Shown: piece by piece, positions 10,027 to 26,602 of the stretch
Numbering within the stretch: position 1 is the first letter of the stretch
Layout of the letters: each line of letters opens with the position of its first letter
DNA from: a bacterium
Lineage (GTDB): Bacteria > Chloroflexota > Dormibacteria > Aeolococcales > Bog-877
Reading direction: 5' to 3'
DNA length: 33,493 bases
Assembly (NCBI GenBank): GCA_021802045.1
Contig: JAKABB010000021.1
Span: 1-33,493 of the forward strand
Translations under genes and position numbers: made by a program
Notes under the pieces: generated by a model
What the model saw: only the letters and a program-made list of their open reading frames with translations
The model's database searches: none
Told to the model about the DNA's origin: nothing

Positions 10027-11555
10027 CCCCGCTCCACGTAGGCCGCCAGCCCCTGGACGCCGCCCTCGCGGCCGAACCCGGACTCGCGGAAGCCGCCGAA
10101 GGGGGCCGCGGCGTCGAACTGGTTGTAGGTGTTGGCCCACACCACCCCGGCCCGCATCCGCTGGGACATCCACAGGATGCGGGCCCCGCTCTGGGTCCAG
10201 ACCCCGGCCGAGAGCCCGTAGCGGGTGTTGTTGGCCCGCTCGACCGCCTCCGCCGGGGTGCGGAAGGTCAGCACCGCCAGCACCGGGCCGAAGATCTCCT
10301 CGCGGGCGATGCGGTGCGACGGGGCCACATCGGTGAAGAGGCTGGGCGGGAACCAGAAGCCGCGCGAAGGCAGCTCGCAGGGCGGCTGGTAGAGGCGAGC
10401 CCCCTGGGCCACCCCGCTGGCCACCAGCTCCGTGATCCGGCCCAGCTGCTCTCGGGAGTTGATGGCGCCGACGTCGGTGTTCTTGTCGAGGGGGTCGCCC
10501 ACCCGCAGCCGGGCCATGCGCCGGGTCAGCCGGCGCAGGAACGGCTCGGCCATCGACTCCTGCAGCAGCAGCCGGCTGCCGGCGCAGCAGACGTGTCCCT
10601 GGTTGAAGTAGATGCCGTTGATGACCCCCTCGACCGCCTGGTCCATGGGCGCGTCGTCGAACACGACGTGGGCGGCCTTGCCTCCCAGCTCCAGCGAGAG
10701 CCGCTTGCCGCTGCCGGCCAGGGCCCGCTGGATCTCCTTGCCGACCGCGGTCGAACCCGTGAAGGCCACCTTGGCCACCCCGGGGGCCCGCACCAGCTGG
10801 GCGCCGACGGGGCCCCCGCCGGTGACGACGTTCACCACCCCGTCGGGCAGGCCGGCCTGCTGGCACAGCTCGGCGAAGAGGAGGGCGGTCAGCGGGGTCG
10901 TCTCCGCCGGCTTGAGGACGACGGTGTTGCCGGTCGCCAGCGCCGGAGCGATCTTCCAGGCCAGCATCATCAGTGGGAAGTTCCAGGGGATCACCTGGCC
11001 GCAGACCCCGAGGGGGCGCCAGGGCGCACCCGGAAAGGCGTGGTCCAGCTTGTCGGCCCAGCCGGCGTGGTAGAAGAAGTGCTGGGCCACCAGCGGGATG
11101 TCCACGTCGCGGGACTCGCGGATCGGCTTGCCGCCGTCCAGGCTCTCCACCACCGCCAGCTCGCGCTGGCGCTCCTGGATCAGCCGCGCCAGGCGGAACA
11201 GGTAGCGTCCGCGGCGGCCGCCCGGCAGGCGGCTCCAGCTGCGGAAGGCGCGCGCGGCCGCCGCCACCGCGCGCTCCACGTCCTCGGGGCCCGCCTCGGC
11301 CACCTCCGCCAGGGGCTCCTCGGTGGCGGGGTTGATGCTGAGGCGATGCTCGCCGGCGGCGGGCGGCCGGAATTGGCCGTCGATGAACAGCTCGTAGCGG
11401 TCGCGCAGGCGCAGGTGGTCCGTCGCCTCCGGGGCCGGGGCGTAGGTGAACCGGCCCCCGGCCGGGCGCCGGTCCTCGGCCCCGTGCCCACCGCCGGGCC
11501 GGGGCGCCGGCGCGGCGTCAGGCGTCGCTGAAGTCGTCGGGGGACTGGTAGCCAC
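10023..11555 (-). CDS. NAD(P)-dependent aldehyde dehydrogenase, deoC-linked
   Basis: Oxidises an aldehyde; next to deoC the likely substrate is the acetaldehyde released by deoxyribose-phosphate aldolase (inference). It has 510 residues with a proline-rich, poorly conserved N-terminal 45. Key residues are all present: Asn192 in IPWNFPLMMLAWK, Lys215 in VVLKPAETTPL, Glu289 in LSLELGGKAAHVV, and the catalytic Cys323 in FNQGHVCCAGSR. The motif EEIFGPVLAVLTF follows, and FGGFRESGFGREGG ends the domain. The start is GTG 11555, overlapping deoC by 38 bases; no later ATG or GTG precedes the conserved domain. It overlaps the ALDH-like gene downstream by 4 bases. Together the two proteins total about 785 residues, close to full-length ALDH16. 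Confidence 0.95.
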   Translation of the reverse strand: MATSPPTTSATPDAAPAPRPGGGHGAEDRRPAGGRFTYAPAPEATDHLRLRDRYELFIDGQFRPPAAGEHRLSINPATEEPLAEVAEAGPEDVERAVAAAARAFRSWSRLPGGRRGRYLFRLARLIQERQRELAVVESLDGGKPIRESRDVDIPLVAQHFFYHAGWADKLDHAFPGAPWRPLGVCGQVIPWNFPLMMLAWKIAPALATGNTVVLKPAETTPLTALLFAELCQQAGLPDGVVNVVTGGGPVGAQLVRAPGVAKVAFTGSTAVGKEIQRALAGSGKRLSLELGGKAAHVVFDDAPMDQAVEGVINGIYFNQGHVCCAGSRLLLQESMAEPFLRRLTRRMARLRVGDPLDKNTDVGAINSREQLGRITELVASGVAQGARLYQPPCELPSRGFWFPPSLFTDVAPSHRIAREEIFGPVLAVLTFRTPAEAVERANNTRYGLSAGVWTQSGARILWMSQRMRAGVVWANTYNQFDAAAPFGGFRESGFGREGGVQGLAAYVERG

Positions 11556-12432
11556 CGCTGTGCTCCTTGGCGATCTGCATCAGGACATCGTTGAGCAGCG
11601 ACGAGGCGCCGAGGCGGAAGCGCTCGGGGGTCAGCCAGTCGTCGCCGAGGACCTCGTTGACCGCGACCAGGTAGGTGATCGCCTGGCGGGCGGTCCGGAT
11701 GCCGCCCGCCGGCTTGAGTCCGATGATTCGCCCCGTCGCCCAGGCGAAGTCGCGGATGGCCTCCATCATGACCACCGCCACCGGGAGCGTCGCCGCCGGC
11801 TGGATCTTGCCGGTCGAGGTCTTGATGAAGTCGGCCCCGGCGGCCATGGCCAGCCAGCTGGCGCGCCGGACGTTGTCGTAGCCGCCCAGCTCGCCGGTCT
11901 CCAGGATGACCTTGAGATGGCGCCCGCCGACGGCCGCCTTGACGGCCGCGATCTCGTCGGCGACCTGCCCGTAGCGGCCGGCCAGGAAGGCCCCCCGGTC
12001 GATGACCATGTCGATCTCGTCCGCGACCGCCGCCGCGGCCCGGGCCTCCGCCAGCCGACCCTCGAACGGCGCCTGGCCGCCGGGGAAGCCGGTGGCCACC
12101 GCCGCCACCCGGACCGGGCTGCACCGCAGGTGGTCTCGCGCCACCGCCGCCAGGGCCGGGTACACGCACACCGCCGCCACCGGGGGGATGGTGGGGTCGA
12201 GGGGGGCGGGATGCATCGCCTTGGTGCAGAGCGTGGCCACCCGCCCCGGGGTGTCGGCCCCCTCCAGGCTGGTGAGGTCGGTGCAGCGGATCGCCAGGTC
12301 GAGCGCGAAGAGCTTGGCCTCGCGCTTGATCGACCGGCTGGCCAGCATCGCCGCTCTCGCCTCGAGGCCGACCTGATCGACCCCCAGGAGGGCTTCGGCC
12401 GGGAGCGGGCGGCGCGCGGTGGCGGCACTCAT
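11518..12432 (-). CDS. deoC: Deoxyribose-phosphate aldolase
   Basis: Cleaves 2-deoxyribose-5-phosphate to acetaldehyde and glyceraldehyde-3-phosphate through a Schiff base. It has 304 residues, the longer form of the family (about 300-330) rather than the 220-260 forms. The Schiff-base lysine is Lys204 in DFIKTSTGK; the proton-relay lysine is Lys240 in GLKPAGGIR. VCVYPALAAVARDHL, VATGFPGGQ and EIDMVIDRGAFLAG are family blocks. ATG 12432 lies 10 bases after the stop of the broken kinase gene; a CATAAT sequence 9 bases upstream might drive separate transcription. Loss of the kinase need not silence deoC, although the IS607 insertion sits upstream in the same transcription unit. The aldehyde dehydrogenase gene downstream overlaps it. 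Confidence 0.97.
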   Translation of the reverse strand: MSAATARRPLPAEALLGVDQVGLEARAAMLASRSIKREAKLFALDLAIRCTDLTSLEGADTPGRVATLCTKAMHPAPLDPTIPPVAAVCVYPALAAVARDHLRCSPVRVAAVATGFPGGQAPFEGRLAEARAAAAVADEIDMVIDRGAFLAGRYGQVADEIAAVKAAVGGRHLKVILETGELGGYDNVRRASWLAMAAGADFIKTSTGKIQPAATLPVAVVMMEAIRDFAWATGRIIGLKPAGGIRTARQAITYLVAVNEVLGDDWLTPERFRLGASSLLNDVLMQIAKEHSGGYQSPDDFSDA

Positions 12433-12442
12433 CCGTCGCCGA

Positions 12443-12974
12443 TTATGGACCGGTCCGCCGGGGTCTTCGCGCGCGCGGGGGCCGTCCGCCCACCTCGCTG
12501 ATGGCGGTGGCGGCGGCCGCAGCCCCGGCGGCCAGGGCCTCCGCCGGCGGCGCCCCGCCCAGCCAGGCCGCCAGCCAGCCGGCGGTGAAGGCGTCTCCGG
12601 CCCCGGTGGTGTCCACCACCGGGGCCGGGGGCGCGGCCAGGCGCTGCCGCTCCGCCCCCCGCGCCCACAGGGCCCCCGCCGGGCCCAGGCTGAGCACGAC
12701 CGCGCCGTAGTCCCCGGTCAGCCCGGCGACGATCGCCTCGGGGTCGGTGGCGCCGGTGAGGACCCGTCCCTCGTCGAGGTTGGGCAGGAGGACGTCGACC
12801 CCGCGGGTCCACGTCCGGAACGCGCCCGCCCCGACCCGCCCCAGGGGGGCGTGGGAGCTGGGGTCGACGGAGATGGTCATCGGGGCCGCCCGGGCCCGCT
12901 CCAGGGCGGTCAGGCCCGCAGGGCGCGTGTCCGGGTCCAGCAGCAGGCAGCCGGACAGGTGCAGGTGCCGTTCC
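12443..12974 (-). pseudogene. psuK: PfkB-family kinase, C-terminal part (gene split by IS607)
   Basis: This is the 3' part of a sugar/nucleoside kinase gene. It opens with ERHLHLSGCLLLDPDTRPAG, continues VDVLLPNLDEGRVLTGA and contains the PfkB signature 2, DTTGAGDAFTAGWLAAWLGG, with the catalytic aspartate. It has no start codon of its own at the right place; the frame simply runs in from the inserted element. Joining G12973 to the kinase N-terminal part at G14944 gives an uninterrupted frame of 310 residues. Because psuG lies immediately upstream, pseudouridine kinase is the likeliest original function; ribokinase-like specificity cannot be excluded. Confidence 0.88.
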
Positions 12975-14294
12975 TCAAACGGCGACAAATGCGACGCGGG
13001 TCTGCGGACCACCGATCGAGCCGGTGAGCTCCGGGGAGATCCCGGTTCCTGCTTCACGGCCACCAGCCAGGCACAGCCTGGACTTACGGTCGGCTCCACA
13101 GGCAGTTCGCGTCTCCGCCGCACTGGCGGTGACGGCCGGGGGGGGCCACCCGGCGAGGTTGATCGCGGCGTTGAGATCGCGGTCCAGGGCCAACCCGCAC
13201 CGTTGGCAGCGGTAGATCCGCTCCGTGAGGGACAGCGCATCCTGGATGGCGCCGCAGCGGGAACAGGTCTTGGAACTAGGGAACCACCGGTCCGCCACCA
13301 CGAGCGTGCTCCCGTACCAGGCACACTTGTAGGCGAGCTGGCGACGGAACTCCGCGAAGCCGGCATCCGCCAGGGACCGGGCGAGGGGCCGATTCCGGAG
13401 CATCCCGCGGACGTTGAGATCTTCGACCACGATCCGGCGGTGGGTCTTGGCCAGGGTGGTCGTGAGTTGGTGCCAATGGTCGCGACGGACGGCGGCCACG
13501 CGAGCGTGGTGCCGAGCGAGCCGGCGCGCGACCTTGGCGCGGTTGCGGGAGCCGCGGCGCTTGCGCGAATGGGCGCGGGAGAGCTGCCGAAGCTTGCGTA
13601 GGCCGCGGCGCAGGGCCTTCGGTCCGGGGATCACCGTGCCGTCGGAGCAGGTGGCCAGAGCCAGGATCCCGAGGTCGACGCCCACGGGATCGAGCGCCCC
13701 GTTCGCGACAGGGATGGCGCGCTCCACCTCGACGGCCAGCGCGACGACCCAGCGGTCGGCCTCGCGGCTGACGGTAGCGGCGCTGATCCGGACGGTGCCC
13801 GCCGCGATCCGGTCCGTCCACCGGCTGGCGTCCTCGTGCAGGCGAACCGTGCCGATCCGCGGCAGGGTGACCGCGCGGCCGTGCAAGGGGAGGGCGCCAG
13901 TGAGCCGGAAGGCGTCGCGGGCGCGGCCCTTCTTCTTGAAGCGGGGGAAGCGGACGCGGGGTCCGGGCCGTTCGCCGCGGCCGCTCGCCCAGAACGCCTG
14001 CAGGCCGCGCTCGAGATTGCGGAACGCCTCCTGGGGCGCACACTTCGAGACCTCGGTCCACCACGGGATGCCGTCCGGGCTGCGCTTCCAGGCGTTCCAC
14101 TCCCGGTGGAGCGTCATCGCCGACGGGACGCGTATGGTCGTGTCGCCCGCCCGGCGGGCGTCGAGCGCATCCATCACCCGGCGCAGGCCCCAGTTGTACG
14201 CATAGCGGGCGGAGCCGGCGTGCCGGGCCAGGTCGCAGCGCTGGGCGACGGTGGGATCGAGAGCAAGGCGCACCGCCTGGTGGACCCGGGCCAT
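12975..14294 (-). CDS. tnpB: TnpB RNA-guided endonuclease (IS607-associated)
   Basis: TnpB nucleases cut DNA under guidance of an RNA made from the element's right end and help retain the transposon. It has 439 residues. The RuvC residues are complete: Asp207 in GVDLGILALA, Glu291 in RIVVEDLNVRGML and Asp373 in LDRDLNAAINLA. The zinc ribbon is present with Cys344, Cys347, Cys363 and Cys366 (CSRCG...CQRCG). The N-terminal helix-rich part, including SARYAYNWGLRR and PRFKKKGRARDAFRL, is usual. ATG 14294 is used because it overlaps the tnpA stop (TGATG). The TGA stop abuts the predicted right end of the element, so the guide would begin in the kinase gene at 12974 and below. Confidence 0.94.
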   Translation of the reverse strand: MARVHQAVRLALDPTVAQRCDLARHAGSARYAYNWGLRRVMDALDARRAGDTTIRVPSAMTLHREWNAWKRSPDGIPWWTEVSKCAPQEAFRNLERGLQAFWASGRGERPGPRVRFPRFKKKGRARDAFRLTGALPLHGRAVTLPRIGTVRLHEDASRWTDRIAAGTVRISAATVSREADRWVVALAVEVERAIPVANGALDPVGVDLGILALATCSDGTVIPGPKALRRGLRKLRQLSRAHSRKRRGSRNRAKVARRLARHHARVAAVRRDHWHQLTTTLAKTHRRIVVEDLNVRGMLRNRPLARSLADAGFAEFRRQLAYKCAWYGSTLVVADRWFPSSKTCSRCGAIQDALSLTERIYRCQRCGLALDRDLNAAINLAGWPPPAVTASAAETRTACGADRKSRLCLAGGREAGTGISPELTGSIGGPQTRVAFVAV

Positions 14295-14872
14295 CAGGCG
14301 GCCTCCACCGGCTGGGCGGCGCACCGCAGCGCCCGAGCCGCCCGGGTCCGGGCTGAGCGGCGGCCGTACAGCCGGGCGCACAGGCTGGTCAGCACCTCGG
14401 TCATGTCCCGCACGAGGTCGTCCTCGACTTCCGTAGCGTCGACCACGAGCAGCCGGCGCCCGGCGCCCAGCAGGGCGGCCTCGATGTACTCGGCGCCGAG
14501 CCGCGCGAGCCGGTCGCGGTGCTCGACCACGATGGTGGTGACGGTCGCGTCGGCGAGCAGGCGGCGCAGCTTCGGGCGGGCACCGTTCATCCCCGACCCG
14601 ACCTCAGCAACCGTGAGGGTGACCGGCAGATCCTGGGCCATCGCCCACCCGGCCAGGCGGCCGAGTTGGCGGTCGAGGTCGGCCCGCTGGTCGTGTGAGG
14701 AGACGCGCGCGTACAGCGCCACGCGCTCGGCCCCCCCCGTCAGGGGCTCCTCGACCAGGATGGTCCCGGACGGGAGCTGGCGAGCGGGAACGGGGAGGGT
14801 GCCGGCCCGAAACCAGCGCATGGCGGTCCGGGGGTGGATGTGCTGGGTCCGGGCCCACTGGCTCAGTTTCAC
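14294..14872 (-). CDS. tnpA: IS607-type serine recombinase (transposase TnpA)
   Basis: Small serine recombinase that moves the element through a circular intermediate. It has 192 residues. The N-terminal MerR-like helix-turn-helix (MKLSQWARTQHIHPRTAMRW) is the DNA-binding part, placed before the catalytic domain as in IS607. The catalytic serine is Ser58 in VALYARVSSHDQ; the supporting motifs EVGSGMNGARPKLRRLL, VVEHRDRLAR (the RLAR arginine pair) and the C-terminal VRDMTEVLTSLCARLYG follow. The GTG start lies 6 bases after TAGACT, so it is likely leaderless. Its stop overlaps the tnpB start by one base. Confidence 0.94.
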   Translation of the reverse strand: MKLSQWARTQHIHPRTAMRWFRAGTLPVPARQLPSGTILVEEPLTGGAERVALYARVSSHDQRADLDRQLGRLAGWAMAQDLPVTLTVAEVGSGMNGARPKLRRLLADATVTTIVVEHRDRLARLGAEYIEAALLGAGRRLLVVDATEVEDDLVRDMTEVLTSLCARLYGRRSARTRAARALRCAAQPVEAA

Positions 14873-14878
14873 CCGCCC

Positions 14879-14887
14879 AGTCTAGCA
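14879..14887 (-). promoter_or_regulatory. Extended -10 promoter element of tnpA
   Basis: TGCTAGACT on the minus strand (TG-n-TANNNT), 6 bases before the tnpA GTG. The identical 9-mer occurs upstream of the nucleoside-binding lipoprotein gene at 26700-26708. Confidence 0.5.
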
Positions 14888-14943
14888 CTATGCACGCCCG
14901 TTTGTGCCAGCTTGTCACCGCCTCCCTGAACAGTTCGTGAACC

Positions 14944-15346
14944 CCCCGGGGGTGAAGAGCCGGGCGGGGAGGTGGTGGGGCTGCAGGGCGGCGCTGGCCC
15001 CCCGGCTGGTGACCATGGTGCGCCCGCCGTCCTGCCCGACCAGCGCCACCACCACCCCGGTGGGCTGGCCGCGGACCGTGGGGCCCCGCAGGGTGATGCC
15101 TCGGCGGTGCAGGTCCTGGCGCTGGTGGCGGCCCAGCCAGTCGGCGCCGACGGCGCCGACGAAGGTGGTGTCCACCCCCAGCCGGGCCAGCCAGGCGGCA
15201 ACGTGGGCCCCCGCCCCTCCGCACTCCAGGGTGATCGTGGCCTGGGTGTCACTGTCCGCCGCCAGGGGGGTGGCCAGCCGGGCGGAGACGTCGGCCAGCA
15301 CGTCCCCGACCACCAGGACCGGGGCGTGGGGCGCCGGGGGGCGCAT
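14944..15346 (-). pseudogene. psuK: PfkB-family kinase, N-terminal part (gene split by IS607)
   Basis: ATG 15346 opens a PfkB kinase: VLVVGDVLADVSARLATPLA, ECGGAGAHVAAWLARLGVDT and FVGAVGADWLGRHQRQDLHR are the N-terminal sugar-binding and lid elements, with the GG signature of PfkB kinases. It reads to HHLPARLFTPG, then enters the insertion element and stops after seven foreign residues. The peptide therefore lacks the ATP site and the catalytic aspartate. It starts 17 bases after the psuG stop, consistent with a psuG-psuK operon. Confidence 0.9.
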
Positions 15347-15363: not shown

Positions 15364-16317
15364 TCAGGCCGGTCGCGACACGGGCGCGGGCTCGCCGGCC
15401 ACCAGGGCCGCCGCCACCGCGGCCGCCAGGCTGGCGTTGGCCAGCACCAGGTGGCGGTTGACGCGCACGCTCTCCCCACCGGTGGCCGCCTCCATGTGGC
15501 CGAGGAGGAACGGGGTCACCGCCTTGCCCCGGATCGCCCGGGCCTCCATCTCCGCCAGGGCGGCCGCCAGCAGCCGGTCGTGCCAGGCGGGGTCGAGCTG
15601 GTGGGCGGGGTCCACCGGGTTGGCCAGCAGGATGCCCGAGGGGGCCGGCTGCAGCCGGCGGGCCGCCCGGACCACCGCCGCCGCCCCGTCGGCGTCGTCG
15701 ACCGACCAGGTCAGCTCGCAGCCGGAGTCGGTGACCAGGAAGCCCGGGAAGCGGCGGGTGCGATAGCCGATGACGGGGACGCCCAGCGTCTCCAACTGCT
15801 CCAGGGTGGCGGGGACGTCGAGGACCGACTTGACCCCAGCGGCCACGACCAGCACCGGCTCCCGGCGCAGCGCCAGGAGGTCCGCCGAGACGTCCCAGCT
15901 CTCGCGGGCGCCCCGGTGGACGCCCCCCAGCCCGCCCGTCGCCATGACTCCGATCCCGGCCGCGGCGGCCAGGGTCAGGGTGGCGGCGACGGTCGTCGAC
16001 CCGTCGGCGCCGCAGGCCGCCGCTGGCGCCAGGTCTCGGTCGGAGAGCTTGATGACGGCGGGGGCGGTGGCCAGGTGCTCCAGCTCGCTGTCGGTGAGCC
16101 CGATCGTCGGGCGGCCGCCCAGGACGCCGATGGTCGCCGGGACGGCCCCGCCGGCGCGAACCGCCGCCTCCAGGGCGCGCCCGACCTCCAGGTTGACCGG
16201 TCGCGGCAGGCCGTGGGCCACGATCGCCGTCTCCAGCGCGACCACCGCCCGTCCCGCGGCCAGGGCGGCGGCCACGTCGGGGTGCAGCCGCAGCGCCGCG
16301 GGGGGAGGGGGTGGCAT
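15364..16317 (-). CDS. psuG: Pseudouridine-5'-phosphate glycosidase
   Basis: Cleaves the C-glycosidic bond of pseudouridine 5'-phosphate to uracil and ribose-5-phosphate. It has 317 residues, the family norm. Conserved blocks: [98 protein letters not shown] and the terminal [20 protein letters not shown]. The glutamate in [10 protein letters not shown] and the lysine in KLSDRD are metal/active-site candidates. ATG 16317 follows TATGGT by 6 bases. The partner kinase, needed to make the substrate, is disrupted by IS607, so PsuG may now depend on imported or RNA-derived phosphorylated substrate, or on another kinase. Confidence 0.96.
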
Positions 16318-21144: not shown

Positions 21145-22419
21145 TCACTCGCGCCGGTACGGCATCCCGTCGGCGCCGGGCGGCCGCACCCGGCCCACCA
21201 GGCCGGCGACGGCGATGATCGTGGCCACGTACGGCGCCATCAGCAGGAAGGGCGAGGGGATCGGCACGTTCAGGACCGCCAGCACGCTCTGCAGCGAGTC
21301 GGCGAACCCGAACAGGAGGGCGGCCGACGCCGCCCACAGGGGCTTCCACCGTCCGAAGATCATCGCCGCCAGGGCCACGAAGCCCAGTCCCGCCGACATG
21401 TCCTGGGTGAACTCGCCGGTGGAGCCGATGGAGAGCGCCGCCCCCCCCAGGCCACCGATGGCCCCGCCCAGGATGACGTTGCGGTAGCGGATGAGGAGCA
21501 CCGAGATCCCGACGGTGTCGGCGGCCCGGGGGTGCTCCCCGACGGCGCGGACCCGCAGCCCCCAGCGGGTGTGGAAGAGGCCGATCTGGATGATGGCCAG
21601 GAGCGCCAGCGCCAGGTACAGGAAGATGTTCTGGTCGAAGAGGATCGGCCCCAGCACCGGGATCCGGTCCAGCACCGGCACCGCGATGTTGGGGAAGATC
21701 TGCGGGCTGTTGAGGGTCGCCTGGTTGGGGGTCAGCACCTGCAGGTCGAGGAAGGCGGTCAGCCCGGTGGCGAAGGTCACGATGACGATGCCGACGATGA
21801 TCTGGTCGGCGTGGTAGCGCAGGCACAAGAAGGCCAGCATCGCCCCCAGGAGCGCCCCCGCGGCGGCGCCCGCCAGCATCCCCAGCCAGAGGTTGCCGCT
21901 GACGGAGCCGATCATGGCGCCGAGGAAGGCCCCGGCGAGGAACTGCCCCTCGATGGCGATGTTGATGACCCCCGAGCGCTCGCACATCACCCCCGACAGG
22001 GAGCCGAAGATGAGCGGGACGGAGTCCACCAGGGTGCTGGCCAGCATGCCCTCCAGGCTGAGGTCCGCCCCCCGGGCCGCCCAGATGACGAACGCCAGGC
22101 CGAACGCGACCAGCCCGGCGGCGAGCAGGGCGTAGGTCCCGCGGGCCCCCCGGCGCAGGGCCAGGACCAGCCCCAGGGCGACGCAGATCGCGGCCAGGAC
22201 CGCGGTCGTCTCCCGCACCGGCACCGCGGGCACCGGCAGGGGCAGCGCGGGGGCCGAGTTCAGGTCCAGGTGGGTCACCACCCCGGCCGGGACGTGGGCG
22301 GCGAAGGCGTACCCGGCCAGCAGGCCGAGGGCCACCAGGAAGCCCCCGAGCCAGCGCCGCCGCCGGTCGGTGCCGGCGGTGGCGGCCGCGGGGACCACGC
22401 CCCAGGCCATCTCGCTCAT
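21145..22419 (-). CDS. nupQ: Nucleoside ABC transporter permease 2 (NupQ/YufQ-like)
   Basis: Second integral membrane subunit of a BMP-dependent nucleoside importer. It has 424 residues, longer than the usual 300-320 because of an N-terminal extension with extra membrane segments (about residues 20-120). The conserved core begins LEGMLASTLVDSVPLIFGSL, SGVMCERSGVINIAIEGQFL (family hallmark) and continues with FHTRWGLRVRAVGEHPRAAD, where the EHPxAAD motif contacts the ATPase, then GGAIGGLGGAALSIG. ATG 22419 overlaps the stop of the first permease by 4 bases. Gene symbol is by analogy with Bacillus subtilis NupNOPQ. Confidence 0.93.
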   Translation of the reverse strand: MSEMAWGVVPAAATAGTDRRRRWLGGFLVALGLLAGYAFAAHVPAGVVTHLDLNSAPALPLPVPAVPVRETTAVLAAICVALGLVLALRRGARGTYALLAAGLVAFGLAFVIWAARGADLSLEGMLASTLVDSVPLIFGSLSGVMCERSGVINIAIEGQFLAGAFLGAMIGSVSGNLWLGMLAGAAAGALLGAMLAFLCLRYHADQIIVGIVIVTFATGLTAFLDLQVLTPNQATLNSPQIFPNIAVPVLDRIPVLGPILFDQNIFLYLALALLAIIQIGLFHTRWGLRVRAVGEHPRAADTVGISVLLIRYRNVILGGAIGGLGGAALSIGSTGEFTQDMSAGLGFVALAAMIFGRWKPLWAASAALLFGFADSLQSVLAVLNVPIPSPFLLMAPYVATIIAVAGLVGRVRPPGADGMPYRRE

Positions 22420-23735
22420 CCGCCCCACCCCTGGGAGAAGAGGCGGAAGCCGGTGCCGCTGGTCCGGATCCGGTAGATGGCCCGCACCAGGGCCGGGGCG
22501 GCGATGAAGAAGACGATCACCGCCTCGATCACCTGCACCAGCTCCAGGGGGATGGTGGTCGACGCCTGCATCTGCAGGCCCCCCGCCTGGAAGGCGCCGA
22601 AGAGCAGTGCCGCCAGGACCACGCCGCCGGGCCGCGCCTGGCCCAGGAGGGCCACGGTGATGGCGGTGAAGCCCAGGTTCTGGGCGAACCCGGGCACCAG
22701 CTGGGGGGAGACGCCCAGGATCTCCACCACCCCGGCCAGGCCGGCCAGGGCCCCGGCGATGACCATCGAGCCGGTGATCATCCGGCGGATGTCGACCCCG
22801 GCGGCGCTGGCCGCGTCGTGGCTCGCGCCCACCATGCGGAAGCGGAAGCCCAGGGTGCTCCGCTGCAGCAGCCACCAGACCCCGTAGGCGGCGGCCAGGG
22901 CCAGCAGGATCCCGGCGTTGACCCGCAGGCCCGGGCCGGCGAGGTGCGGCAGCCGGGCGGAGGCGGGGGTGGTCCGGGAGATGGCGTTGGCCGCGCCGCG
23001 CGGGAGGAAGGCCGGCAGGGACAGCAGGTAGATGAGCAGGTTGGCGGCCACGTAGTTGAGCATGATGGTGACGATCACCTCATGGGCTCCGGTGCGGGCC
23101 CGCAGCACCCCGGGCACCCACCCGGCCACGGCCCCGGCGCCGGCGCCGGCCAGGATCGCCAGGGGGAGGTGCACCGGCCAAGGGAGGCCGGGCAGGGAGA
23201 ACCCGACCCAGCCGGCCACGATGGCCCCGGCCAGCAGCTGGCTCTGGGCCCCGATGTTGAAGAGCCCGGTGCGGAAGGCCAGCGAGACCGAGAGCCCGCC
23301 CAGCAGGAGCGGGGCGGTGGCGACGAGCGTCTCCGACAGGGGGTAGGCCGCGGCGGTGAGGGCCGGGGGCGAGAGGCTGGTGATGGCGTGCAGCCAGGCC
23401 GCCGGGCTGCCCACGGCCCCGACGAAGAGGGCGGTGTAGGCGCTGGTCACCAGGGTCCAGGAGCTGCCGAGGGCGGCGCCGGGGTTGGAGGGGAAGGCGC
23501 TCCAGGCGCTGAGCGTCTGGGGGGTGGTCACGATCATGATCACCGCGCCCACCACCAGGGCCGAGAAGATGGCCAGGGTGGTGGTGACGGCGGTGCCGGA
23601 GCGGGCCACGACCTGCAGGCCCCGGCCCAGGCGGCGCCGCGCATCGGGCAGCCATCGGGCCCCGCCACCCTCGGGCGGCGCCGGGGGCTGCTCCACGTCG
23701 GGCGCCACCGCCGGCGACTCCGCCTGACCGCTCAC
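22416..23735 (-). CDS. nupP: Nucleoside ABC transporter permease 1 (NupP/YufP-like)
   Basis: First permease of the importer, with 439 residues (family about 350-370) because of a charged N-terminal tail and extra residues before the core. The hallmark LLLGGLSVSLAFRTGLFNIG plus AQSQLLAGAI is present, as are RARTGAHEVIVTIMLNYVA and FRFRMVGASHDAASAAGVDI, the ATPase coupling region. About nine hydrophobic segments can be counted. The start is a GTG overlapping the ATPase stop (GTGA). The order ATPase-permease-permease with successive 4-base overlaps matches nupOPQ and keeps the subunits at even stoichiometry. Confidence 0.94.
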   Translation of the reverse strand: MSGQAESPAVAPDVEQPPAPPEGGGARWLPDARRRLGRGLQVVARSGTAVTTTLAIFSALVVGAVIMIVTTPQTLSAWSAFPSNPGAALGSSWTLVTSAYTALFVGAVGSPAAWLHAITSLSPPALTAAAYPLSETLVATAPLLLGGLSVSLAFRTGLFNIGAQSQLLAGAIVAGWVGFSLPGLPWPVHLPLAILAGAGAGAVAGWVPGVLRARTGAHEVIVTIMLNYVAANLLIYLLSLPAFLPRGAANAISRTTPASARLPHLAGPGLRVNAGILLALAAAYGVWWLLQRSTLGFRFRMVGASHDAASAAGVDIRRMITGSMVIAGALAGLAGVVEILGVSPQLVPGFAQNLGFTAITVALLGQARPGGVVLAALLFGAFQAGGLQMQASTTIPLELVQVIEAVIVFFIAAPALVRAIYRIRTSGTGFRLFSQGWGG

Positions 23736-25258
23736 GGCGCCGCCGCCGCCGGGCCGCTCGTCACCCCGGCCATCATCAGCCCGATCTCCTCTCGCGGCGT
23801 GGAGGGCTGCGCGTAGCCGGTGATCCGCCCCCGGGACATGACGGCGATGCGGTCCCCCAGCCCCAGGACCTCGTCGAGCTCGGTCGAGACCAGCAGGATG
23901 GCCGTGCCCCGGTCCCGCTCCTCGACCAGGCGACGGTGCACGATCTCGGTGGAGCCCACGTCCAACCCGCGGGTGGGCTGGGTCGCGATCAGCAGCTTCA
24001 GGGGGCGGGAGAACTCCCGGGCCAGGACCACCTTCTGCTGGTTACCGCCCGAGAGGGTGGCGGCCGGGGCGGCGGGGCCGGCGGCCCGGATGTCGAACTC
24101 CTCCAGGCGGGCGCGCGCGTTGGCCGTGACCGCCCGGGGGTCGAAGCGCAGCCCCCGCCCGAACGGGGCGCGGTCGTACAGGTCCAGCACCAGGTTCTCG
24201 GCCACCGAGAAGGGCAGCACCAGCCCCTCGCGCTGCCGGTCCTCGGGGACGTAGCCCACGCCGGCGGCGGCCACCCGCCGGGGGGTGGCCCCGGTGACGT
24301 CGGTGCCGTCCACCCGGACCCGGCCCGCCACGGGCGGGACCAGGCCGAAGAGGGCCCGGACCAGCTCCGTCTGGCCGTTGCCCTGGACGCCGGCCACGGC
24401 CAGGATCTCCCCGGCCCGCACCTGGAGGGCGACGTCGACCACGGCCAGCGCCCCGCGGGCATCGGCGACCGTCAGGCCCTCGACGTCCAGGACCACCCGC
24501 CCGGCCTGGGCCGCGGCCTTGGCGACCCGGAACTCCACCGCCCTGCCGACCATCATCGAGGCCAGCTCGGCCTCGCTGGTCCGGTCGGGGGTCGTCCGCC
24601 CGACCACCGCGCCGTGGCGCAGCACCGTGATCCGGTCGGCGATCTCCAGGACCTCGCCCAGCTTGTGGGTGATGAACAGGATGGAGCGGCCATCGGCCTT
24701 CAGCGATCGCATCACCCGGAAGAGCTCCCCGATCTCCTGGGGGGTGAGCACCGCCGTCGGCTCGTCGAGGATCAGGAGCTGGGCCTGGCGGACCAGGGCC
24801 TTGACGATCTCCACCCGCTGCTGGACGCCGACGGGCAGCGACTCCACCACCGCCTCCGGGTCGACGTCGAGACCGAAGGCCTGGGAGAGGCGGCGGATCT
24901 CTTCGTGGGCCCGGCGCCGGTCGAGGAAGCCGAGCGGGCCGCGCACCGGCTCATGCCCCAGCACCACGTTCTCGGCCACCGTGAACACCGGGACCAGCAT
25001 GAAGTGCTGGTGGACCATGCCGATGTGCGCGTCCAGGGCGGCCCGCGGACTGCCCAGGTGCACCGGGTGCCCGTCGATCAGGATGGTGCCCTGGTCGGCA
25101 TGGTAGAGGCCGTAGAGGATGTTCATCAGCGTCGTCTTGCCGGCGCCGTTCTCGCCCAGGAGGGCGTGGATCTCGCCGGGCTCGACGGTCAGGTCGACCG
25201 CCCGTGAGGCGACCAGACTGCCGAAACGCTTGGTGATGCCGCGCAACTCGACCTGCAA
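23732..25258 (-). CDS. nupO: Nucleoside ABC transporter ATPase, two ABC domains (NupO-like)
   Basis: Energises the importer; a tandem ATPase of about 508 residues. First domain: Walker A GENGAGKTT (35-43), LPVGVQQRVEIVKAL signature and LLILDEPTAVLTPQE Walker B. Second domain: degenerate P-loop GVQGNGQTELVRAL, typical of this family, then GVGYVPEDRQREGLVLPFSV, LSGGNQQKVVLAREF and LLIATQPTRGLDVGS. The preferred start is TTG 25258, preceded by GGAG with 5 bases of spacing, which gives LQVELRGITKRF at the normal family N-terminus; a GTG at 25336 would add 26 low-complexity residues. It lies after a strong stem-loop that follows the lipoprotein gene. Confidence 0.94.
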   Translation of the reverse strand: MQVELRGITKRFGSLVASRAVDLTVEPGEIHALLGENGAGKTTLMNILYGLYHADQGTILIDGHPVHLGSPRAALDAHIGMVHQHFMLVPVFTVAENVVLGHEPVRGPLGFLDRRRAHEEIRRLSQAFGLDVDPEAVVESLPVGVQQRVEIVKALVRQAQLLILDEPTAVLTPQEIGELFRVMRSLKADGRSILFITHKLGEVLEIADRITVLRHGAVVGRTTPDRTSEAELASMMVGRAVEFRVAKAAAQAGRVVLDVEGLTVADARGALAVVDVALQVRAGEILAVAGVQGNGQTELVRALFGLVPPVAGRVRVDGTDVTGATPRRVAAAGVGYVPEDRQREGLVLPFSVAENLVLDLYDRAPFGRGLRFDPRAVTANARARLEEFDIRAAGPAAPAATLSGGNQQKVVLAREFSRPLKLLIATQPTRGLDVGSTEIVHRRLVEERDRGTAILLVSTELDEVLGLGDRIAVMSRGRITGYAQPSTPREEIGLMMAGVTSGPAAAAP

Positions 25259-25348
25259 CGTTGCTCCTGCTCGCGCCGCCCTGCCGTGGTCGCCCCCCCA
25301 CCCCGGTCCGCGCGCGGCCGCAGACCCGGGGCGCACCAGCGCGGAGAT

Positions 25349-25380
25349 CGGGCCCGCGCGGCGCGTGCCGCGCGGGCCCG
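25349..25380 (-). terminator. Perfect 14-bp stem-loop between lipoprotein and ATPase genes
   Basis: CGGGCCCGCGCGGC and its exact reverse complement enclose the 4-base loop GCGT. It starts 20 bases after the lipoprotein stop and has no T-run, so it is more likely a partial terminator or 3' mRNA stabiliser than a full stop, and would let the lipoprotein be made in excess over the membrane complex. Confidence 0.75.
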
Positions 25381-25400
25381 GGGTCCCCTAGCGGCGCATC

Positions 25401-26540
25401 TCAGCCGTTGACCGGGTAGCTGTTGGGGTTGACCGAGATGGTACCGGCGATGATCCCCTGCTTGATGGTCTGCAGCTCGCTCTGCACACTGGCCGGGATC
25501 TTGCTGGAGAAGTCGTGGAAGGGGGCCAGGGCCACCCCGTTGTTGGCCAGGGTCCCGCTGTAGTTGCCGCCCTGGAAGGTGCCGTGGGCCGCCGCCAGGA
25601 CCGCCGCCTCGACCGAGGTGGCGATGCCCTTGGTGACGCTGGTGAGGAAGATGCTGCAGTACTGGGGGGCGGAGACGCAGCCGTCGGTGTCCACCCACTC
25701 CATGTAGTTGGAGCCACCGGCGGCCTTGACCGCCGCGGCGGCGCCGAGCCCGACCGACCCCGCCACCGGGAAGATGACGTCGGCCCCCTGGTTCATGAGG
25801 TTTTGGGTGTCCAGCCGGCCGGAGGCCTGGTCGGTGAAGCTACCGGTGAACAGGCCGGTGTTCTTGGCGGGGTTCCAGCCCAGCACCTTGACGTGGGCGT
25901 GGTTGTGCTGGTCGTAGTAGCGGACCCCGGCCACGAAGCCGTTCATGTAGATGGTCACCGGGGGGATGTCGATGCCCCCGAAGGTGCCCACCACATGGGA
26001 CTTGGACATGGCGGCCGCCAGGTAGCCGCCGAGGAAGGCGTCCTGGTTGGTGGCGTAGAAGAGGCCCAGCACGTTCGACATGGCCGGAGAGTAGGTGTAG
26101 TCCACGATGGCGAACTTCTGGTTGGGGTTGGCCTTGGCCGCGGTCTGGGTGGCCTGGGCCATGAGGAAGCCGACGGTGACGATGATGCCGCAGTGCTGGC
26201 CCACGAAGGCGTTGATGTTGGGCACGTAGTCGCTGGAGGTGGTCGACTGCAGGTACTTGACCTTGATCTGGGGGTCGGCCTTGGCGGCGTCCAGCATCCC
26301 CTGCCACGACGAGGCGTTGAAGGAGCGGTCGTCGATGCCGCCGGTGTCGGTCACCATGCAGCCCTGGAAGGTGGTCTTCACCGCCGGGGTGTGCTTGGGG
26401 CCGGTGGTGGGCGTGGAGGTCGCCCCCCCGCAGGCGCTGGCGATGAGGGGCAGGATCGCCAGCGCCACCAGCCGGGCGCCGCGCCAGCGCCGTCCCCACC
26501 TGCTGGACGGGCGCGAGTCTACCGAGGTCGGGTCAGCCAT
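25401..26540 (-). CDS. nupN: BMP-family nucleoside-binding lipoprotein
   Basis: Extracellular substrate-binding lipoprotein of the importer (BMP/PnrA family, purine-nucleoside binding). It has 379 residues. A signal peptide with a basic start and hydrophobic core LVALAILPLIASAC places the lipid-modified cysteine at about residue 37, followed by a low-complexity linker. The domain shows FQGCMVTDTGGIDDRSFNAS (family hallmark DxGGIxDxSFN), GIIVTVGFLM, NQDAFLGGYLAAAM and VDTDGCV. ATG 26540 is used because GGAGG lies 6 bases upstream; the ATG at 26546 is fused to that site. A leader of about 150 bases precedes it. Confidence 0.95.
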   Translation of the reverse strand: MADPTSVDSRPSSRWGRRWRGARLVALAILPLIASACGGATSTPTTGPKHTPAVKTTFQGCMVTDTGGIDDRSFNASSWQGMLDAAKADPQIKVKYLQSTTSSDYVPNINAFVGQHCGIIVTVGFLMAQATQTAAKANPNQKFAIVDYTYSPAMSNVLGLFYATNQDAFLGGYLAAAMSKSHVVGTFGGIDIPPVTIYMNGFVAGVRYYDQHNHAHVKVLGWNPAKNTGLFTGSFTDQASGRLDTQNLMNQGADVIFPVAGSVGLGAAAAVKAAGGSNYMEWVDTDGCVSAPQYCSIFLTSVTKGIATSVEAAVLAAAHGTFQGGNYSGTLANNGVALAPFHDFSSKIPASVQSELQTIKQGIIAGTISVNPNSYPVNG

Positions 26541-26602
26541 GGACATCCTCCAATCTCACTGCCGGCGGCCGTCGCCATTCCCTGCGCCACCGGCGGTGGG
26601 GA

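What the first reader, a model, noticed from the sequence alone, without database searches (positions are those of the whole stretch)
12443..15346. IS607 inserted inside a PfkB (probable pseudouridine) kinase gene, with an exactly restorable frame
The kinase N-terminal part (15346 down to 14944) and C-terminal part (12973 down to 12443) flank a complete tnpA-tnpB element. Joining them at the GG core gives one 310-residue frame, HHLPARLFTPG-ERHLHLSG, with normal PfkB spacing. This fixes both element ends to the base. psuG next door is intact, so the lineage has a glycosidase without its dedicated kinase, or the population is mixed for this insertion.
Basis: partly seen in the sequence, partly recalled or inferred. 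Interest (0 to 1): 0.75.

Follow-up and report, generated by a model that had tools for sequence, protein, structure and literature searches.

The report
Jumping gene inside a kinase gene

Summary
A complete IS607 element (tnpA-tnpB) lies within a PfkB kinase gene, in a nucleoside breakdown cluster of a Ca. Dormibacterota MAG. Three family relatives have the intact gene (58-61% identical) next to psuG. Related copies end in AACGG (mostly GAACGG), so the right GG core is 12968-12969, not 12973-12974. At the left the crossover falls at the end of the G run (14942-14947). The same rule restores four other interrupted genes in relatives (ABC ATPase, flavin/NAD reductase, DksA/TraR-type protein, PadR regulator). 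A pseudouridine-kinase role is supported by context: in 18 family genomes, kinase and psuG occur in the same four, always adjacent. Sequence alone does not single out PsuK. psuG is full length, so this assembly has it without its neighbouring kinase. A mixed population could not be tested; no empty-site sequence exists in the MAG. No intron was found, so it is not an IStron. An ordinary insertion: new member of a known kind.

The parts
14948..15346 (-). N-terminal part of the interrupted PfkB kinase gene (ATG at 15346); its frame runs on into the element and stops at 14915-14917
   Evidence: PF00294 match, profile 4-120; ORF list
14942..14947 (-). Run of six G; the last two (14942-14943) are the left GG core, the rest is target sequence
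   Evidence: Left ends of related copies and four restored host genes
12970..14941 (-). IS607-family element, left end TTCACGAACTGTTCAG..., right end ...TTTGAGGAAC; 1974 bp with one GG
   Evidence: Homologous ends in relatives
14294..14872 (-). tnpA, IS607-family serine recombinase, 192 aa
   Evidence: NF033518 185 bits against cut-off 110; IS1535 TnpA 6DGB, E 8e-50
12975..14294 (-). tnpB, RNA-guided endonuclease; RuvC D/E/D and zinc-finger cysteines present; its ATG overlaps the tnpA stop by one base
   Evidence: NF038280 399.7 bits against cut-off 350; alignment to ISDra2 TnpB; start read
12968..13157 (-). Predicted guide-RNA scaffold region (last 190 nt), overlapping the 3' end of tnpB, with a covarying hairpin CACCGG..CCGGTG; the guide would be the kinase sequence from 12967 downward
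   Evidence: Covariation over 23 sequences
12968..12969 (-). Right GG core
   Evidence: Related right ends end in AACGG
12443..12967 (-). C-terminal part of the kinase gene, with the DTTGAGDAF catalytic motif
   Evidence: PF00294 match, profile 132-297; alignments
15364..16317 (-). psuG, pseudouridine-5'-phosphate glycosidase, full length
   Evidence: PF04227 E 2.5e-108; PDB 8k05 and 4gij
11518..12432 (-). deoC, deoxyribose-phosphate aldolase, neighbour of the kinase also in L006 and L007
   Evidence: TIGR00126 over cut-off; relatives' loci

Best explanation
A standard IS607-family element inserted, by TnpA serine recombination at a GG dinucleotide, into a PfkB kinase gene that probably is the pseudouridine kinase partner of psuG. 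Shown: the kinase is split, its parts are colinear with intact relatives, and the element's genes are complete. Inferred: the insertion inactivates the kinase, because the N part ends within the element and lacks the DTTGAGDAF motif. Also inferred: precise excision over GG would restore a 309-residue frame, while TnpB, guided by the kinase sequence next to the right end, would cut a restored allele and so favour keeping the insertion. Inferred too: pseudouridine taken up as nucleoside can no longer be phosphorylated by this enzyme, although psuG could still act on pseudouridine monophosphate arising directly from RNA breakdown.
For: Pfam and NCBIfam matches; intact orthologues L006, L007, L008 beside psuG; related right ends at AACGG; the joining rule restores four unrelated genes in relatives while one G fewer breaks them; the 309-aa join matches the length of five homologues at the junction; the same 4 of 18 family genomes carry kinase and psuG, adjacent; full-length psuG; only one full element copy in the MAG and no contig break at the site; IS607 inserts at (G)GG without target duplication (PMC6188088); published IS607 TnpB motifs are AGGAG and GAGGG (PMC11061315), and four of ten left flanks here read GAGGG.
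Against: No same-genus empty site is held; the closest orthologues are only about 60% identical. One related left end (L061, GCAGGATTC) does not fit the left-end rule exactly. Sequence searches do not rank PsuK above ribokinase. TnpB activity and its target motif in this lineage are untested, and the window's own flank (CGGGGGG) is not one of the two published motifs.
Confidence: 0.9

Rival explanations
1. One reading: the element ends at the GG at 12973-12974 and the joined kinase has 310 residues.
For: It also gives an open frame with one PfkB match.
Against: Related copies show that GAACGG belongs to the element and that the GG at 12973-12974 is not conserved; the join is one residue longer than five homologues.
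Confidence: 0.03
2. The insertion is tolerated because an RNA-level process removes it from the message, as in IStrons (IS607 elements with a group I intron).
For: Element and gene are on the same strand and the frame is restorable.
Against: No Rfam match in the element at gathering score or at E<=1; only 69 nt lie between the left end and tnpA, and tnpB ends five bases before the right core, so there is no room for a group I intron.
Confidence: 0.02
3. The kinase was never a pseudouridine kinase but a ribokinase-like or other nucleoside/sugar kinase of the same cluster.
For: Best family matches are ribose-1-phosphate kinase and ribokinase models, all below cut-offs; PsuK models score low.
Against: Exact co-occurrence and adjacency with psuG in the family, and adjacency again in another family of the class.
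Confidence: 0.3
4. The population is mixed: the MAG consensus carries the insertion while other cells keep the intact gene.
For: The source looks like a MAG, and both kinase parts are free of stops and frameshifts, as for a recent insertion.
Against: No empty-site sequence in the MAG with up to 3 mismatches, though assembly would usually drop the minor allele.
Confidence: 0.25

Closest known systems
IS607 family (H. pylori IS607; M. tuberculosis IS1535)
   Same: tnpA serine recombinase, tnpB, GG at the ends, (G)GG target, no target duplication
   Different: Nothing of substance; a Dormibacterota lineage in which tnpB runs to five bases before the right core
IS607 TnpB with reRNA (ISFba1)
   Same: RuvC nuclease next to a structured RNA at the right end; G-rich motif at the left flank
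   Different: The RNA region overlaps the tnpB 3' end and has no Rfam match, so it is not a recognisable RAGATH-18 RNA
E. coli psuK-psuG pair
   Same: PfkB kinase gene beside psuG
   Different: The kinase is only distantly related to E. coli PsuK by sequence, and is interrupted here
IStrons (IS607 plus group I intron)
   Same: IS607-type element inside a gene
   Different: No intron found, so no splicing repair

Membership tests
IS607 family | tnpA is an IS607-type serine recombinase | tested here: met
   NF033518 over cut-off; IS1535 TnpA structure match
IS607 family | insertion at GG without target-site duplication | tested here: met
   Left core GG 14942-14943, right core GG 12968-12969; flanks join colinear with relatives
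IS607 family | IS607-type tnpB with intact RuvC residues | tested here: met
   NF038280 over cut-off; D, E, D and cysteines present in the alignment to ISDra2-type TnpB
IS607 TnpB RNA-guided nuclease | structured guide RNA at the right end | tested here: met
   13 of 28 pairs with changes on both sides over 23 sequences, shuffle mean 6.9, maximum 11; relatedness not controlled
IS607 TnpB RNA-guided nuclease | cleavage of a target with its flanking motif | not testable with these tools
   Needs an assay; ten left flanks all end in GGG, four in GAGGG
Pseudouridine kinase (PsuK) | PfkB fold family with GAGD catalytic motif | tested here: met
   PF00294 match, DTTGAGDAF in the C part
Pseudouridine kinase (PsuK) | specific sequence match to PsuK | tested here: not met
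   NF007355 38.7 bits against cut-off 540; ribokinase-type hits score higher
Pseudouridine kinase (PsuK) | gene pairing with psuG | tested here: met
   Same 4 of 18 family genomes, adjacent
Pseudouridine kinase (PsuK) | phosphorylates pseudouridine | not testable with these tools
   Needs an enzyme assay of an intact relative
IStron | group I intron at one end | tested here: not met
   No Rfam match

The most novel reading that the evidence does not exclude
In this Dormibacterota family IS607 elements repeatedly sit, in frame-restorable form, inside genes at GGG sites that serve both as recombination target and as part of the TnpB motif. TnpB guided by the interrupted gene then polices the restored allele, making the insertion a locked switch on a pseudouridine-salvage kinase.
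Probability: 0.08. Interest if true: 0.5.

Novelty: new member of a known kind. Interest (0 to 1): 0.2.

Why it matters
It is a clean example of fixing IS607 ends from related copies and interrupted genes rather than from an open frame alone, and it shows a naturally broken member of a psuG-linked kinase family in an uncultured phylum. The overlap of the (G)GG recombination target with a GAGGG-type TnpB motif in several insertions is a small testable point.

Tried and rejected
Group I intron or other known RNA in the element: none. Empty site in the same MAG: none. A same-genus intact gene: none held; the family search returned only 18 genomes. Deciding PsuK against ribokinase by PDB or NCBIfam profiles: inconclusive. 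A first estimate of the left end from alignment alone suggested that one G belongs to the element, which would have put the kinase out of frame; the four restored host genes reversed that. Most right-end-only fragments in relatives showed no left end nearby.

Full report
What is there. The window is contig C52 of a 3.0-Mb, 206-contig genome of about 86% completeness. The element's closest relatives in named records are Candidatus Dormiibacterota MAGs, so the host is placed in that phylum by inference. On the minus strand, a PfkB reading frame begins at 15346 and ends at a stop just inside an insertion; a second PfkB stretch ends at 12443. Each part matches PF00294 alone (profile 4-120 and 132-297), and together they match once, residues 10-299. 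Between them lie tnpA, an IS607-family serine recombinase (NF033518, 185 bits against a cut-off of 110), and tnpB, an IS607-family RNA-guided nuclease (NF038280, 399.7 against 350). The closest solved relative of TnpA is IS1535 TnpA. The closest natural solved relative of TnpB is ISDra2 TnpB, and the RuvC and zinc-finger residues are present. The MAG has one full element copy, plus a 30-base left-end relic on another contig and weaker matches, so the site is not an obvious repeat misassembly.

Intact relatives. Three genomes of the same family carry the uninterrupted gene, 58-61% identical over nearly the whole length. It lies next to psuG in all three, with deoC on the other side in two of them, as here. 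No same-genus genome is held.

Right end. Copies of the element in relatives were aligned at their ends. The right ends finish in AACGG, nearly always GAACGG, followed by unrelated sequence; two differ by one base (L054 GGAAGGG, L067 GGAATGG). The core is GG at 12968-12969.

Left end. In the window the left end follows six G. In relatives it is usually GGG followed by T. Four relatives' copies interrupt recognisable genes: an ABC-transporter ATPase (L055), a flavin/NAD oxidoreductase (L056), a DksA/TraR-type zinc-finger protein (L058) and a PadR regulator (L065). Keeping all three G and joining to the sequence after AACGG restores each protein across the junction and improves or completes its Pfam match; keeping two G breaks each one. 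So the left core is the last GG before T, and in the window all six G stay with the gene. H. pylori IS607 is reported to prefer (G)GG targets with no duplication (PMC6188088).

Joined gene. With six G and the corrected right end, the joined kinase has 309 residues and reads LFTPGG-HLHLSG. The frame is thus restorable, but with different ends from those claimed. The element with one GG is 1974 bp.

What the kinase is. NCBIfam gives only below-cut-off matches, ribose-1-phosphate kinase and ribokinase first and pseudouridine kinase far below its cut-off; PDB searches likewise rank ribokinases higher. Context is stronger. Among 18 genomes of the family, the kinase occurs in four and psuG in the same four, adjacent in each. 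In another family of the class, kinase and psuG are again neighbours (L160, L161, L162), while in a third family psuG has no such kinase in the stretch fetched around it. The window also holds cytidine deaminase, pyrimidine-nucleoside phosphorylase, deoC and a PnrA-like, nucleoside-type transporter. A pseudouridine-kinase role is therefore likely but not shown. psuG itself is full length and matches solved pseudouridine-5'-phosphate glycosidases end to end.

Guide RNA and motif. Over 23 right ends a consensus structure has 28 pairs, 13 of them with changes on both sides, against a shuffle mean of 6.9 and maximum of 11; the sequences are related, so this is support and not proof. The terminal hairpin (CACCGG..CCGGTG in the window, GTCCTGG..CCAGGAC in others) is the clearest. 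Ten readable left flanks all have G before the GG core, and four read GAGGG, one of the two published IS607 TnpB motifs (PMC11061315); one further left end, L061, does not fit. The guide here would be the kinase sequence CACCTGCACCTGTCC, so TnpB could cut a restored allele. That step is inferred.

Limits. Reads were not available, so a mixed population cannot be excluded; the MAG has no empty-site sequence within three mismatches. There is no known intron or other RNA family in the element. The finding is a normal IS607 insertion; its main value is the corrected ends and the psuG-linked kinase family.

Noticed in passing
L003 1501-1530 (G000:C49:22443-22472, minus strand): A 30-base stretch identical to the element's left end (GGGGGTTCACGAACTGTTCAGGGAGGCGGT) without the rest of the element: a left-end relic in the same genome.
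   Followed up: partly
L088 228-532 (G006:C204): A mini-element of about 305 bp with an IS607-type left end after AGGG, the guide-RNA-like right end and GAACGG, but no room for tnpA or tnpB: possibly a non-autonomous copy that carries only the guide RNA.
   Followed up: partly
L071, L066, L067, L077, L078 (relatives): Right-end-only fragments inside contigs, some keeping a well-conserved guide-RNA region although no left end was found in the stretch searched.
   Followed up: partly
L170, L172, L173 (G055:C25): In a class relative both psuG and the neighbouring kinase are broken into several frames, which looks like a decaying pair or sequencing errors.
   Followed up: no
L164-L169 (third family of the class): psuG without a kinase of this type in the stretch fetched around it.
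   Followed up: partly
window 22416-26546: PnrA-like (Bmp) substrate-binding protein and a BPD_transp_2 permease: probably a nucleoside ABC transporter beside the catabolic genes.
   Followed up: partly
L055, L056, L058, L065: Four other IS607 copies in family relatives interrupt an ABC ATPase, a flavin/NAD reductase, a DksA/TraR-type gene and a PadR regulator, so landing inside genes is common for this element lineage.
   Followed up: yes
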